A stretch of 41,772 bases of DNA, taken from NCBI GenBank assembly GCA_903928965.1, contig CAIYSZ010000068.1, positions 1 to 41,772 of the forward strand, given 5' to 3'. Below, in pieces: positions 14,555 through 20,818 of this stretch. Positions within the stretch are counted from its first letter, which is position 1, and the number at the start of each line of letters is the position of its first letter. Below the pieces are notes generated by a model that was not told the origin of the DNA, searched no databases, and worked only from the letters and a program-made list of their open reading frames with translations. This DNA comes from an uncultured Pseudomonadota bacterium. Its GTDB lineage: Bacteria; Pseudomonadota; Gammaproteobacteria; Methylococcales; Methylomonadaceae. The translations under genes were made by a program, and so were the position numbers.

Positions 14555-16837
14555 ATGACCATACCCCATGTACCAAAGAACTCTCAAGCCAAATGCCGTA
14601 ATTTTTGGGGCTTGAAGCCAGTACATTCTATTTTCTTTTTCGGGTGTGCGATGCTGGGTTTCGGCTTGTTTAGCGGCGTAAGCCATGCCGCTGATATTCC
14701 TGGGCTGGCACCCTCCCTGAAATCCATTGCGGTTCCCTATCCGGCCGGGGTCCTGGATGGACCTAATCCCATTGTGATCGACAAACAAAAAGCCGTTGCA
14801 TTGGGAAAAGCCTTGTTCTGGGACATGAGCGTGGGGAGTGACGGAGTTGCATGCGCCACCTGCCATTTCCACGCGGGCGCGGATGGGCGCACAAAAAATC
14901 AATTTTCTCCCGGAAAGGCGCACATGCCCGCCACGCCTAGCTCCCCAAACGCCTTTGATCCCATTGATGAACGCGGGCCGAAACTGGCCAATTATCAGTT
15001 GACCACGGCGGATTTTCCGCTTCACCAGTTTGGCGATCCCGCGACGGACGCGCCAGGCGACATCGACTCCGTCACCTTGCTAAACCCGATGACTTATAAC
15101 GCGGTCGCTTCGGCCGGCACCTTTTCCGGGCAATTCGTGCGCATCAAACCTAACGGCGCTGAAGAGTGCATCCCCTTGACCGGGTCCGGCCTGGATCAAA
15201 CCTATAATGTTGGCGGGGTTCATACGCGCCGGGTCGAGCCACGCAATACCCCCACCATTATCAATGCGGTGTTGTTCGATAGAAATTTTTGGGATGGCAG
15301 GGCAAGTTTTCTGTTTAATGGCGTATCGCCGTTCGGCGCGCGGGAACCGGATGCCTTTATCTGGGTGGTTGATGCCGATAATGTGCTATGGAAAACACGA
15401 CTGGCCCTTGAGAACGCCTCACTGGCCTCGCAGTCGCTTGCGCCCCTGACCAATGAGTTTGAAATGTCCTGCCGTAATCGATCGATCCAGGATGTCGCTC
15501 GCAAGCTGTTGAACAATCGACCATTACATCAGCAGGCCATCGCTGCCGATGATAGCGTGTTGGGTACGGCGGCCTTTTCCCATCACGTCAGTGGTCTAGG
15601 ATTGGAAACCACCTACCTCGCCATGATCCAGGCGGCTTTTGCACCCAGATATTGGTCCGCCGGCGTCAAGTCGGTTTTCGGAAAGCCTTCTTATAGCAGT
15701 TTAAGCTACAGTCAGGCTGAAGCTAATTTCGGGATGTTTTTCGGCATCGCGGTACAGTTGTATGCTTCAACCTTGATTTCGGACAACACGCCTTTTGATC
15801 AGGCGAATCTGGTCGTCAGTCCCGTGCCGGGGCCAGGTCAAACCATCAAGGCCACCTCCACGTTTACCGATACTAGCGGCATCTTGAATGCCCAACAGTT
15901 AGCGGGTCTGCAAGTATTTGTCAAAGGCCTGTGCAATCAATGTCACAGCGGGCCGATTTTCAGCACGGCGACTAACCGAAACACGATTGATGCCCAGACT
16001 CAGCAAACGAGTTTCCGTCCCATGCTGTCACGGCAGAAGATGTTTTTCGACACCTTTATTTCCACCCACGACGTCGGGTATTTCAATAACGCGGCAGTCC
16101 CCAGTTCCACCGATGCGGGATTGGGCGGGAACGACAACTTTGGTCATCCTTTGGCCTTTGTCGATCAATATATTAATGGGCTTGCCGGAATCTCCGGCGC
16201 GGTGGTTGAACCCTTGCCATTGACGCTGGCCTGCCAATTTCAGCGTCCCTATACGACGGATTTCTCCGCTTCGGAACTCATTGACGATCCGTCAGGCAAT
16301 ATAGGCTGTGCGAATCCGGGTAATGCCTATGTACCCCGACCCGATATCGTGGCTACCGCCCTTCAGAACCCCAATGATACTAACTTCATCCATGGCGGCC
16401 ATCTCTTTAAAGTGGCGCAGCTATACAACGTCGAACTGACGGGTCCTTACATGCATAACGGCGGCATGGCCACGTTGGAACAGGCTATCAATAATTACAT
16501 GCGAGGCGGCAATTTCGGCCCGTTTAATCCGAATATGAATATGCGTAACGCGGAAAAAGGCGGCGCGGTGGTTGCGGTGAATTTTACCTCGACGGATCGC
16601 GCGAATTTGGTCGAATTTTTGAAAGCCCTTACCGATGAGCGGGTGCGCTACGAGCGGGCGCCTTTTGATCATCCGCAACTTTTTGTTGCCAATGGTCATC
16701 CCGGAGATAATGTCAGCATCTCGCAGCGGTCGGCGAATGGACTGGCGGAGGATACGCTACTGGAAATACCCGCCGTTGGCAGTGGAGGTAATACCGAGCC
16801 TTTGGATACGTTCTACAACCGCTTGCCATCGCCCTGA
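14555..16837 (+). CDS. large di-heme cytochrome c peroxidase/MauG-like protein (SACCP/CorB type)
   Basis: 760-residue secreted protein: the signal peptide ends around SHAADIPG (residue 46). The first haem motif is CATCH (C100-H104) and the second CNQCH (C460-H464). GPYMHNGGMATLEQAINNYMRGG (in parts) is the conserved segment near the C terminus of bacterial di-heme peroxidases. At roughly twice the size of ordinary CcpA it matches the surface-associated SACCP of Methylococcus and CorB of Methylomicrobium, which sit beside the copper-responsive MopE/CorA. The family includes MauG and MbnH, which oxidise a Trp on a partner protein. A small secreted protein follows 54 bases later. The SD is weak (CAGAGAACGAAC). 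Confidence 0.8.
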   Translation: MTIPHVPKNSQAKCRNFWGLKPVHSIFFFGCAMLGFGLFSGVSHAADIPGLAPSLKSIAVPYPAGVLDGPNPIVIDKQKAVALGKALFWDMSVGSDGVACATCHFHAGADGRTKNQFSPGKAHMPATPSSPNAFDPIDERGPKLANYQLTTADFPLHQFGDPATDAPGDIDSVTLLNPMTYNAVASAGTFSGQFVRIKPNGAEECIPLTGSGLDQTYNVGGVHTRRVEPRNTPTIINAVLFDRNFWDGRASFLFNGVSPFGAREPDAFIWVVDADNVLWKTRLALENASLASQSLAPLTNEFEMSCRNRSIQDVARKLLNNRPLHQQAIAADDSVLGTAAFSHHVSGLGLETTYLAMIQAAFAPRYWSAGVKSVFGKPSYSSLSYSQAEANFGMFFGIAVQLYASTLISDNTPFDQANLVVSPVPGPGQTIKATSTFTDTSGILNAQQLAGLQVFVKGLCNQCHSGPIFSTATNRNTIDAQTQQTSFRPMLSRQKMFFDTFISTHDVGYFNNAAVPSSTDAGLGGNDNFGHPLAFVDQYINGLAGISGAVVEPLPLTLACQFQRPYTTDFSASELIDDPSGNIGCANPGNAYVPRPDIVATALQNPNDTNFIHGGHLFKVAQLYNVELTGPYMHNGGMATLEQAINNYMRGGNFGPFNPNMNMRNAEKGGAVVAVNFTSTDRANLVEFLKALTDERVRYERAPFDHPQLFVANGHPGDNVSISQRSANGLAEDTLLEIPAVGSGGNTEPLDTFYNRLPSP

Positions 16838-17753: not shown

Positions 17754-18512
17754 TTAGGAGACGAAACCGGTTTTCCGGCGCGAATAGCCGACTAAGCCAG
17801 CAATGGCGCTGCCAAACAACCACACCGCCGAAGGAACCGGAACCGCGCTCGCGGTAGCGGTAAGTAAATTGTGGCCCGTGGTTTTACCGCTGGTGTTGTT
17901 ATAGTCGGAACCGCCATCCAGGATGTAGTAGTCGCCTGGAGCCAATCCGGTCAAGGTCAGCGTGACGTAAGCCAAGCCATTGCTGTCGGTGCCATAAGTG
18001 TATGATCCTGAAACAGAAGCGCCAATGCCGCCATGTCCCACGGCGTTACCGTCGGCGTTGGTGAAAGTCGCGCCGGCGTTGCCGTAGCCAACCAAATAAT
18101 CCACAGACCCAGTCAGAAAGTCGTTGGTGTTGCCGCCGGTTGTTGGGCCGGTAACTTGGTCGTATTGATGAGAGCCGTCAATGTGGCCGGTGGCGGCGCC
18201 ATCGATTTTATGCCAAACGGTAAAGCCGGGCAGGGCGTCGGTGGTTGCCGTTTCGCTATCGGTGATTGAAACAGTGCCCGTGCCGCCGGAAACAATTAAG
18301 TCATGATAGCTGGAGGTGTGGTTCCAGCCTAGATTCGCTCCGAATGCGAAAGACCAGGAGGTTTTGCTGTTGCTGTCGGTGACCGAGGCGGTGCTGCCTG
18401 CGGCGCCGCTGTCGAAAGCAACTAAAGTAGCGTTAGCCTGGATTGAAACCGACGATAGCGCCGCGACCCCCAAAAGGCCAATAATGGCTTTGTTGAGTTT
18501 CTTTTTGATCAT
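17754..18512 (-). CDS. PEP-CTERM sorted secreted protein
   Basis: 252 residues: N-terminal signal peptide ending at QANA, a Gly/Ser/Thr-rich beta domain, and a C-terminal sorting tail VPVPSAVWLFGSAIAGLVGYSRRK, i.e. short Pro motif, hydrophobic helix, basic cluster. This is the methanotroph variant of PEP-CTERM, processed by exosortase. No exosortase is in the window. The function of the body is unknown. It is convergent with the single-Trp protein gene and preceded by a riboswitch-like leader (18605-18690). Confidence 0.85.
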   Translation of the reverse strand: MIKKKLNKAIIGLLGVAALSSVSIQANATLVAFDSGAAGSTASVTDSNSKTSWSFAFGANLGWNHTSSYHDLIVSGGTGTVSITDSETATTDALPGFTVWHKIDGAATGHIDGSHQYDQVTGPTTGGNTNDFLTGSVDYLVGYGNAGATFTNADGNAVGHGGIGASVSGSYTYGTDSNGLAYVTLTLTGLAPGDYYILDGGSDYNNTSGKTTGHNLLTATASAVPVPSAVWLFGSAIAGLVGYSRRKTGFVS

Positions 18513-18604
18513 TGTAATACCTCATAAATTTGAAAGTTCATTGGGTTCATTTACGTTGTGATGCTCTTCCCGTCGTTCAAGGAAGTTGACTCCCCATCAC
18601 ATCT

Positions 18605-18690
18605 TAGGAGGTAACCCGGCTGTCTCAGAAACTCTGAAACCCGTGGCATTCCGGCCCCGCCTCGCGACGGGTGTGGCAAAAGTTCTCGCA
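18605..18690 (-). promoter_or_regulatory. GEMM (c-di-GMP-I)-like riboswitch candidate, variant core
   Basis: Read on the minus strand: TTTTGCCACACC, then hairpin CCCGTC-GCGA-GGCGGG with a GNRA loop, the joiner GCCGGAATGCCACGG, a second hairpin GTTTCAGA-GTT-TCTGAGAC, then CAGCCGGGTTACC. This is the two-hairpin GEMM layout; GGGG-CG-AA-GCCACGGG and AGCCGGGTTRCC match the known consensus. Positions that form the ligand pocket differ: the joiner reads CCGGAATGCC where the consensus has ACGCAAAGCC, and the 5' GGCAAACC is replaced. It ends about 95 bases before the PEP-CTERM gene. c-di-GMP commonly controls surface genes. Variant subclasses with altered cores are known. Confidence 0.6.
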
Positions 18691-19111: not shown

Positions 19112-20818
19112 ATGCAGCAAACAGCTTCCTCCAAAATAGGCCGCAACGAGCCTTGTCCCTGTGGCAGCGGAAAAAAATACAAGTCTTGTTGTAACGGTTC
19201 AGCCTTAAAAGGCGATAGAACTATTCCGCCTGACGCCCAGGTTATGCAGCAACATGCTCAGAGAGCAGTCGCTCAGGGGGACTTTGCCGGGGCCGAGCAA
19301 TGGTTCCGCAAGTTACACGCTATAAGACCTAATGATGCTTTAGTTTTAGCCAGTCTCGGGCAAGCCTTGTGTTGGCTAAACCGGAAACGAGAAGGTTTAA
19401 GTTATTTATTACGCGCCGCCAAGCTGTTAGAGAATCAAGCCAAAAAAAACGTAGATCCCCGGCCGATTATAGAATTATCCAGCCAGTTACTGCATTGGGG
19501 CGAGGTAAATGCCGCCGAACGTTTGGCTAAGCTAGCGGTTACGCTTACCGCCAATTCACCGTTCGCCTTGAATAATTTAGCGCTTTGTTTGAGCCGGGTC
19601 AATCGTAATAGTGAGGCGCTACCTATTGCCAGGCAAGTTTGTCAGCTCTTACCCAATCACCCTGGATGCAATATATTGTTAGCTATAATAGAATCGCAGC
19701 TAGGTGACTCTAGCGCGGCTTTGGAGCGTCTGGAAAGCGTTATACGCCGTAATGACGACCCTGAACAAACCGCGCGCGCCCATCTTGAAATGGGCGTTAT
19801 CCTAGATAAACTGGGTCGTTATGACGAGGCTTTTCCGGCGCTAACCAAGGCCGCGGAAAGCCGTTCCGCGTTGCTGAAGCAGCGTCCCGAAACGCGGGAA
19901 TATTTATTCGAGGTATTACAAACCAATAGTCTTGGTTTTGATTGTGAATTACTCCATCGCTGGCCGGCGGAAGCGCTAAAAGAGGATGAATTGCCGACGC
20001 CAGCGTTTTTGTTGGGTTTTTTACGGTCAGGCACCACACTGACGGAACAAATACTGGATGCGCATCCACGGGTGATTGCTACCGACGAGAGTAGCATCGT
20101 GCATGAACTTACTCAAGAACTTCAGTCTATTAGCGGTATTACTAATGACCATGCGCGGGCATTGAAATCTCTAAATGATTCTCAAATAAAACAGCTTCGC
20201 CAATTTTATTGGCAACGCATGCGTCAAGAATACGGCGAGGACGTCATGCACAAACAGCTTGTCGACAAAAATGCCCTGAATACTATTGATGTAGGGGTAA
20301 TAAGCGTGATATTCCCGGAGGCTAAAATTTTGTTTGCGCTTCGTGATCCTAGGGATGTTTGCATTAGTTGTTTCATGCAGGCATTTTCACCTGCCCCGGC
20401 AACGGTCAACTTACTTTCATGGCAAGGTATCGCCAAGCAGTATGCGGCAGTCATGCATTATTGGTTAAAGGTGAGATATGATATTCAGCCGAAGTTTCTT
20501 GAATTACGCTACGAAGATACCGTTGCTGATTTTGAACAAACGTACCGAAAGGTCTTTGCCTTTTTAGGCGTCGAATGGTGGCCCGATGTAATAAAGTATC
20601 ACGAACAAACCAAAGGCCGCTACATTTCCACCCCCAGTTTTTCGGCGGTGTCGCAGCCGGTTTATCGCACGGCCGTAGCCCGCTGGAAACACTATGAAGC
20701 ACGGTTTGCATCCATTCTTCCCATACTAGCGCCATTCATTGATGTTTTTGGTTATGCGGATCGCCCTATTGAGCAGCCCATTCAGAGTAACTCATTCCTA
20801 CTAACTCATTCCGAGTAA
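19112..20818 (+). CDS. SEC-C / TPR / sulfotransferase fusion
   Basis: 568 residues in three parts. A SEC-C zinc motif, CPCGSGKKYKSCC, lies within the first 30 residues. A TPR superhelix follows (about 45-270; e.g. ALVLASLGQALCWLNRKREG, ARAHLEMGVILDKLGRYDEA). The sulfotransferase domain has the 5'-phosphosulfate loop GFLRSGTTLTEQIL near residue 300 and the 3'-phosphate motif LRDPRDVCIS near 408. It should transfer sulfate from PAPS to an unknown acceptor, probably a carbohydrate or protein. TPR-sulfotransferases are common in aquatic proteobacteria; the SEC-C motif on one is less usual. No PAPS synthesis genes are nearby. Confidence 0.8.
   Translation: MQQTASSKIGRNEPCPCGSGKKYKSCCNGSALKGDRTIPPDAQVMQQHAQRAVAQGDFAGAEQWFRKLHAIRPNDALVLASLGQALCWLNRKREGLSYLLRAAKLLENQAKKNVDPRPIIELSSQLLHWGEVNAAERLAKLAVTLTANSPFALNNLALCLSRVNRNSEALPIARQVCQLLPNHPGCNILLAIIESQLGDSSAALERLESVIRRNDDPEQTARAHLEMGVILDKLGRYDEAFPALTKAAESRSALLKQRPETREYLFEVLQTNSLGFDCELLHRWPAEALKEDELPTPAFLLGFLRSGTTLTEQILDAHPRVIATDESSIVHELTQELQSISGITNDHARALKSLNDSQIKQLRQFYWQRMRQEYGEDVMHKQLVDKNALNTIDVGVISVIFPEAKILFALRDPRDVCISCFMQAFSPAPATVNLLSWQGIAKQYAAVMHYWLKVRYDIQPKFLELRYEDTVADFEQTYRKVFAFLGVEWWPDVIKYHEQTKGRYISTPSFSAVSQPVYRTAVARWKHYEARFASILPILAPFIDVFGYADRPIEQPIQSNSFLLTHSE

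What the first reader, a model, noticed from the sequence alone, without database searches (positions are those of the whole stretch)
18605..18690. GEMM (c-di-GMP-I)-like leader with altered ligand-core bases before a PEP-CTERM gene
The antisense strand folds as two parallel hairpins, the first with a GCGA tetraloop, joined by a segment close to the GEMM consensus and closed by AGCCGGGTTACC. The scaffold matches, but the joiner reads CCGGAATGCC where c-di-GMP binders have ACGCAAAGCC, and the 5' strand also differs. Such core changes accompany altered ligand specificity in known GEMM variants. Control of an exosortase-sorted protein by an altered second messenger would be new.
Basis: partly seen in the sequence, partly recalled or inferred. 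Interest (0 to 1): 0.72.

Follow-up and report, generated by a model that had tools for sequence, protein, structure and literature searches.

The report
Ordinary c-di-GMP riboswitch, unusual setting
The RNA leader is a recognisable c-di-GMP riboswitch in front of a gene for an exported, sorted surface protein; most of its odd bases are usual among its relatives and do not point to a new signal molecule, but it is the only such switch found in a genome with very few c-di-GMP enzymes.

Summary
Window 18607-18687 (-) passes Rfam's cut-off for the c-di-GMP-I riboswitch (45.1 bits, cut-off 35), 94 nt before a PEP-CTERM-type gene. The altered-ligand reading is not supported. The three ligand-contact bases (G20, A47, C92, Vc2 numbering) are present. 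The odd joiner is mainly a swapped base pair, C21-G46 for G21-C46, found in 149 of 150 genus copies and in other proteobacteria. RF03168 (UAU) scores higher, 50.0, but below its cut-off of 65.9, and its match leaves out the two U columns that define it.

In the genus, 110 of 150 fetched copies precede a PEP-CTERM gene, so the pairing looks like a regulon. A printed precedent exists in Methylophaga (PMC12530212, passages).

Two things remain unusual. U49 gives a U-U mismatch beside the ligand site and is unique among 197 copies. The genome (92% complete) holds one detected aptamer and one GGDEF match, against 35-70 in 28 of 36 congeners. Most likely this is a working or weakened c-di-GMP switch left in a small c-di-GMP network. 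On/off direction is not settled.

The parts
18607..18687 (-). c-di-GMP-I (GEMM-I) riboswitch aptamer
   Evidence: RF01051 45.1 bits, gathering score 35, model positions 1-87 of 87
18656..18671 (-). P2 hairpin with GCGA (GNRA-type) tetraloop
   Evidence: covariation in 126 distinct genus rows
18677..18677 (-). G20 (Vc2 numbering, recalled), ligand contact
   Evidence: G in 147 of 150 genus copies, A in 3
18675..18676 (-). C21-C22, 5' side of the inner pairs with G45-G46 (18651-18652)
   Evidence: 21-46 is CG in 149 of 150, GC in 1; 22-45 is CG 125, UG 17, UA 7, UU 1
18650..18650 (-). A47, ligand-stacking base
   Evidence: A in 149 of 150 genus copies
18648..18648 (-). U49, forming a U-U mismatch with U90 (18613)
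   Evidence: A in 148 of 150 genus copies; U only here, C only in L215; A in all 47 copies from outside the genus that were aligned
18611..18611 (-). C92, ligand contact
   Evidence: C in 130 of 150 genus copies, U in 19, G in 1
18590..18610 (-). candidate expression-platform hairpin P4 (CUCC...GGAG), overlapping the aptamer's 3' strand
   Evidence: across the genus the 3' strand pairs better with its own downstream 40 nt than with swapped ones (mean -6.97 against -5.61 kcal/mol, better in 67 of 103 nonredundant leaders, Wilcoxon p 1.8e-6; control region p 0.95). For this copy alone 22% of swapped partners do as well. Here P4 is weak, -3.9 kcal/mol, against -7.3 to -10.6 in nine leaders of the GGGGAGG type; three of the 20 other leaders printed have a still weaker one
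18519..18523 (-). likely Shine-Dalgarno GAGGU, complementary to ACCUC of the aptamer's 3' strand
   Evidence: seen in sequence; tail-SD pairing is not better than swapped pairs across the genus (n 61, p 0.09)
17754..18512 (-). PEP-CTERM-type exported protein gene, 252 aa
   Evidence: ORF; C-terminal motif, below curated cut-offs

Best explanation
It is a member of the c-di-GMP-I riboswitch class, in the short-P3, C21-G46 form that dominates this genus. It most likely binds c-di-GMP through G20, A47 and C92. Binding would hold the aptamer's 3' strand (A91-C96) and so block a competing hairpin (P4, CUCC/GGAG) that uses the same bases; this changes output of the downstream sorted surface protein. 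No terminator-like site was found, so control is more likely translational or Rho-dependent than by intrinsic termination. I expect c-di-GMP to turn the gene on: in Desulfobacterota relatives the same 3' strand appears, by eye, to form the 5' arm of a terminator (for example L275, L303, L269). Shown here: class membership, the intact ligand triplet, covariation, the genus-wide gene link, one GGDEF match and an exosortase XrtD in the genome. Inferred: the ligand, the P4 competition in this copy, the sign of control. U49 may weaken the switch.
For: RF01051 above cut-off. Ligand triplet G/A/C present and pair swap compensated. The best-scoring 150 of 184 genus matches were examined, and 110 of those 150 precede a PEP-CTERM gene; 112 of 150 by a second rule. 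Across 37 whole genomes 863 VPLPA-CTERM matches were found at E up to 0.1, so the link looks far above background; that threshold is loose (1 of 14 control genomes rings) and the first look was capped at 150 candidates in some genomes. Genomes with more than 4 GGDEF matches have an aptamer in 29 of 30 cases; genomes with 0-4 have one in 1 of 7, and that one is this genome (Spearman 0.52, p 0.001, relatedness not corrected). The single GGDEF protein has FKSIND, GHACGD and GGEEF and aligns with PleD. XrtD exosortase at 561 bits. Over the order, RF01051 passes its cut-off in 143 of 301 genomes and RF03168 in 1 of 301. Printed precedent: PMC12530212.
Against: U49-U90 is a mismatch in a pair that is standard in 108 of 126 distinct rows, so this copy could be impaired. 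RF03168 scores higher than RF01051 (50.0 against 45.1), though below its own cut-off. SD accessibility does not differ between the modelled bound and P4 states (n 74; 26 more open, 35 less open; p 0.24), nor in this copy (0.36 in both). In an earlier fold with the aptamer forced but its 3' strand left free, the SD was more paired than without constraint, which points the other way from an ON switch. The P4 of this copy is weak. No promoter stands out (1 found, 1.3 expected).
Confidence: 0.72

Rival explanations
1. Relict: the aptamer is decaying because this lineage has little c-di-GMP signalling left, and it no longer switches.
For: One GGDEF, two EAL and no PilZ match in a genome 92% complete, while 29 of the 36 other genomes of the genus carry at least 23 GGDEF matches; only one aptamer; the six other genomes with 0-4 GGDEF have none; U49 unique; weak P4.
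Against: The other tallied core bases and helices are intact and the score is above cut-off. The GGDEF active-site motif is intact. One mutation is thin evidence of decay, and assembly error cannot be excluded.
Confidence: 0.2
2. Altered-ligand GEMM variant, as the first reader proposed (cGAMP, c-di-AMP or an unknown dinucleotide).
For: RF03168 (UAU, which I recall as an orphan variant) outscores RF01051. G21 and C46 were listed as key residues for c-di-GMP binding in a simulation of the canonical aptamer (PMC9049102, passages), and both are exchanged here; U49 lies beside the site.
Against: G20, A47 and C92 are present; the UAU match omits both U columns; the swap is shared by 149 of 150 genus copies and by other phyla; no DAC match; GGDEF with Asp, not Ser.
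Confidence: 0.06
3. Not a riboswitch: a structured leader that resembles GEMM by chance.
For: Folding energy is not unusual (z -1.04).
Against: Covariance-model score, 0 of 100 shuffles with the core pattern, and covariation in relatives.
Confidence: 0.02

Closest known systems
c-di-GMP-I riboswitch (GEMM-I, RF01051)
   Same: Whole model matched; ligand triplet G20/A47/C92; P2 and P3 with GNRA-type loop on P2
   Different: Inner pair swapped (C21-G46); short P3 lacking the CUAA...uAuG receptor-like segments of the model consensus; U49-U90 mismatch
c-di-GMP-I-UAU (RF03168)
   Same: Short P3 scaffold, 50.0 bits
   Different: Below the cut-off of 65.9; G20 and C92 instead of the model's U at both columns
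c-di-GMP-I-GGC (RF03167)
   Same: Same clan and related scaffold; many other C21-G46 aptamers score best with it (13 of 17 sampled loci)
   Different: The model consensus reads G at position 47; here it is A
c-di-GMP riboswitches before PEP-CTERM genes in Methylophaga nitratireducenticrescens GP59 (PMC12530212)
   Same: Same riboswitch ligand class and same target type, three PEP-CTERM and one VPLPA-CTERM gene in its Table 4 (passages)
   Different: Different genus; transcript levels only, no ligand test in the passages read

Membership tests
c-di-GMP-I (RF01051) | Score at or above the curated cut-off | tested here: met
   45.1 against 35 bits
c-di-GMP-I (RF01051) | G20, A47, C92 at the ligand site (positions recalled from Vc2 structures) | tested here: met
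c-di-GMP-I (RF01051) | Covarying helices in relatives | tested here: met
   relatedness of the rows not corrected
c-di-GMP-I (RF01051) | Tetraloop receptor in P3 | tested here: not met
   CUAA...uAuG segments deleted in the alignment; I do not count it as defining, because related aptamers over the cut-off lack it too, by eye
c-di-GMP-I (RF01051) | Binds c-di-GMP and changes gene output | not testable with these tools
   needs in-line probing and reporters
c-di-GMP-I-UAU (RF03168) | Score at or above cut-off | tested here: not met
   50.0 against 65.9
c-di-GMP-I-UAU (RF03168) | U20 and U92 | tested here: not met
   model consensus U at both columns; here G and C
c-di-GMP-I-GGC (RF03167) | G47 | tested here: not met
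   A47 here; consensus G
cGAMP riboswitch (GEMM-Ib) | A20 (recalled; G20A mutant binding cGAMP in passages of PMC7288161) | tested here: not met
   G20 here
PEP-CTERM protein (gene product) | C-terminal Pro-x-Pro, hydrophobic stretch, basic end, with an exosortase in the genome | tested here: met
   motif by sequence; XrtD 561 bits
PEP-CTERM protein (gene product) | Score over a curated sorting-signal model | tested here: not met
   below the cut-offs of TIGR02595, TIGR03370 and PF07589

The most novel reading that the evidence does not exclude
In a genome stripped to a single diguanylate cyclase and no PilZ protein, this one riboswitch is the last dedicated c-di-GMP output, and its U49 change has retuned the site (affinity or ligand), so that one cyclase and one riboswitch form a minimal private second-messenger circuit for a sorted surface protein.
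Probability: 0.1. Interest if true: 0.6.

Novelty: new member of a known kind. Interest (0 to 1): 0.3.

Why it matters
It shows that the GEMM core change that looked like a new specificity is normal natural variation, which guards against over-calling ligand variants from the joiner or from the names of Rfam sub-models. It also places the switch in a genus-wide set of c-di-GMP-I riboswitches before PEP-CTERM genes, which makes a link between c-di-GMP and exosortase-sorted proteins testable in cultivable methanotrophs. The one-cyclase, one-aptamer genome is a simple natural case for asking whether such a circuit still works.

Tried and rejected
Altered ligand: rejected as the main reading for the reasons above. 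RF03168 membership: rejected, below cut-off and wrong triplet. Intrinsic terminator: none found (0; shuffles mean 0.3). Direct SD masking by the aptamer's 3' strand (ACCUC/GAGGU): attractive in this copy (15% of swapped partners do as well) but not supported across the genus (n 61, native mean -3.74, swapped -3.88, p 0.09). Bound against P4 state and SD opening: no difference (n 74).

Limits. The 150 genus copies are the best-scoring 150 of 184 matches; the weakest 34 were not listed and not examined. In one search, at E up to 0.01, 1 of 14 control genomes gave a match, below the family cut-off. The 47 order-level copies were best-scoring loci of two model searches, not a random sample. The gene census used simple ORF rules and cut stretches; 17 of 150 gave no call and 23 a non-PEP call, some of them because a long gene ran off the stretch. 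One search scanned 20 of the 29 fetched loci of protein relatives. One search printed 21 of 74 leaders. The pattern fixes A47-A49, so it says nothing on U49. Vc2 numbering, the meaning of the UAU/GGC names and the published survey of GEMM variants are recalled, not read. That I found nothing in print on Methylomonas c-di-GMP riboswitches rests only. My notebook says 12 of 17 for RF03167; the count is 13 of 17.

Full report
What is there. The minus strand at 18607-18687 matches the whole c-di-GMP-I model (RF01051) at 45.1 bits, above the cut-off of 35, and is the only gathering-level RNA family hit in the 41,772-base window. The next gene on that strand starts 94 nt downstream, codes for 252 aa and ends in a PEP-CTERM-like tail. 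Curated tail models match it only below their cut-offs, but the genome has a strong XrtD exosortase (561 bits) and 20 VPLPA-CTERM matches at the loose threshold of E up to 0.1.

Where it lives. The genus is therefore probably Methylomonas; this is inference.

The core bases. In Vc2 numbering (recalled) the window has G20, A47 and C92, the bases that face the ligand. The altered joiner is mainly a swap of the inner pair: C21-G46 in place of G21-C46. In 150 copies from the genus the swap is present in 149, and the next pair 22-45 varies as CG 125, UG 17, UA 7, UU 1. C24 and C43 are common too (78 and 64 of 150). In 47 copies from outside the genus but inside the order, 30 have G-C and 17 have C-G. 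By eye, the G-C copies mostly carry a GAAA loop and a longer P3 with a receptor-like segment, and the C-G copies mostly carry a short P3; so two forms coexist in the order. A core pattern of the C-G form occurs in many proteobacterial and Campylobacterota records (117 stretches before the scan stopped). The swap is therefore ordinary variation of the class. A published simulation names G21 and C46 among key residues in the canonical aptamer (PMC9049102, passages), so an effect on affinity cannot be excluded.

U49. Only this copy has U at position 49, where 148 of 150 genus copies have A and one has C; all 47 other-genus copies have A. U49 faces U90, so one pair next to the ligand site is lost. 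The only other exception, L215 with C49 and C90, also has A91 like this copy, while 104 of 126 distinct rows have G91; two cases prove nothing.

Sub-model names. RF03168 (UAU) scores 50.0, more than RF01051, but under its cut-off of 65.9, and the match runs from model position 11 to 75, leaving out both U columns (consensus seen). In the order, RF03168 matches 138 of 301 genomes at E up to 0.001 but passes its cut-off in 1, and that one aptamer (L032) has G20 and C92 and scores best with RF03167. RF03167 (GGC) has G47 in its consensus, yet 13 of 17 sampled loci, which have A47 by construction of the search pattern, score best with it above its cut-off. These names follow the scaffold as much as the ligand bases.

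Covariation. In 126 distinct rows, P2 and P3 pairs keep standard pairing in most rows with two-sided changes: for example the outermost P2 pair CG 103, UA 19, GC 1, with 3 of 126 not standard, and the P3 pair 51-88 CG 87, UA 31, UG 7, with 1 of 126 not standard. Rows are related, so this is support and not a probability.

The gene link. Of the 150 examined genus copies (best-scoring of 184), 110 are followed by a gene with a PEP-CTERM tail by one rule and 112 by another. Over the 37 genomes 863 VPLPA-CTERM matches were found at E up to 0.1, so this is a strong association; I did not compute a formal test. Nine of 20 scanned loci holding relatives of the window's protein also carry an RF01051 hit (29 such loci had been fetched). 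Other targets include large surface proteins and a GDSL-type protein, judged by eye. The pairing has a printed precedent: in Methylophaga nitratireducenticrescens GP59, c-di-GMP riboswitches 4-7 flank VPLPA- or PEP-CTERM genes, and 10 of 11 riboswitches had higher transcript levels in biofilm, riboswitch 5 being the exception (PMC12530212, passages).

The signal. This genome (92% complete) has one GGDEF match, two EAL matches, no PilZ and no DAC match. The GGDEF protein keeps GGEEF and an Asp in GHACGD and aligns with PleD. Hypr enzymes that make cGAMP have Ser at the Asp position (PMC6456294, passages); that GHACGD holds this position is my reading. Over 37 genus genomes, those with more than four GGDEF matches carry an aptamer in 29 of 30 cases, and those with 0-4 in 1 of 7, the one being this genome. 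Relatedness and completeness were not corrected for. This favours a GGDEF product as ligand, and makes this genome an outlier: one enzyme, one detected aptamer.

How it may work. The aptamer's 3' strand (C93-C96) can pair with GGAG 13 nt further on, forming a hairpin P4 that competes with the ligand site for these bases. Across 103 nonredundant leaders the 3' strand pairs better with its own downstream stretch than with those of others (67 of 103, p 1.8e-6; control region p 0.95); for this copy alone the effect is not marked (22% of swapped partners do as well). In this copy P4 is weak (-3.9 kcal/mol). No T run follows it, unlike the terminator-like arms seen by eye in Desulfobacterota relatives. 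How P4 reaches the ribosome site is unresolved: modelled SD accessibility did not differ between states, pairing of the 3' strand with the SD is not supported across the genus, and one constrained fold of this copy closed the SD. I expect an ON switch, by analogy with the terminator-bearing relatives and with the role of c-di-GMP in sessile growth; that step is inference.

Verdict. A new member of the c-di-GMP-I class in a known kind of setting. The altered-messenger reading is not supported. The remaining interest is the one-cyclase, one-aptamer genome and its private U49 change.

Noticed in passing
L122, L104, L124, L131, L137, L052, L138, L149, L152, L158, L159, L170, L171, L172, L176, L179, L181, L196, L198: 19 of 150 genus aptamers have U92 (triplet G20/A47/U92), in 18 genomes; all 19 precede a PEP-CTERM gene by the rule, and in several genomes they lie about 5 kb from a C92 copy. 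U92 would favour A opposite it (inference), so these are better candidates for altered specificity than the window's copy; two more occur in other genera (L051, L056).
   Followed up: partly
L105, L128, L160: Three genus aptamers carry A20, the hallmark of cGAMP-binding GEMM-Ib (recalled). Two of them (L105, L128) precede similar large exported proteins.
   Followed up: partly
G000:C77:19256-19726 (L236): The only GGDEF match found in the window's genome; 28 of 36 congeners have 35-70.
   Followed up: partly
Rfam RF03167 and RF03168: The GGC and UAU models accept or rank highly aptamers with A47 and, in L032, the ordinary G/A/C triplet, so a hit to them does not show an altered ligand.
   Followed up: partly
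window 14555-16837 (+): Large di-haem cytochrome c peroxidase / MauG-like protein (PF03150).
   Followed up: no
window 19112-20818 (+): Divergent neighbour: SEC-C motif, TPR repeats and a sulfotransferase domain in one protein.
   Followed up: no
L240: Two tandem c-di-GMP-I aptamers about 110 nt apart in a Thiomicrorhabdus record, about 1.5 kb from a run of tRNA genes.
   Followed up: no
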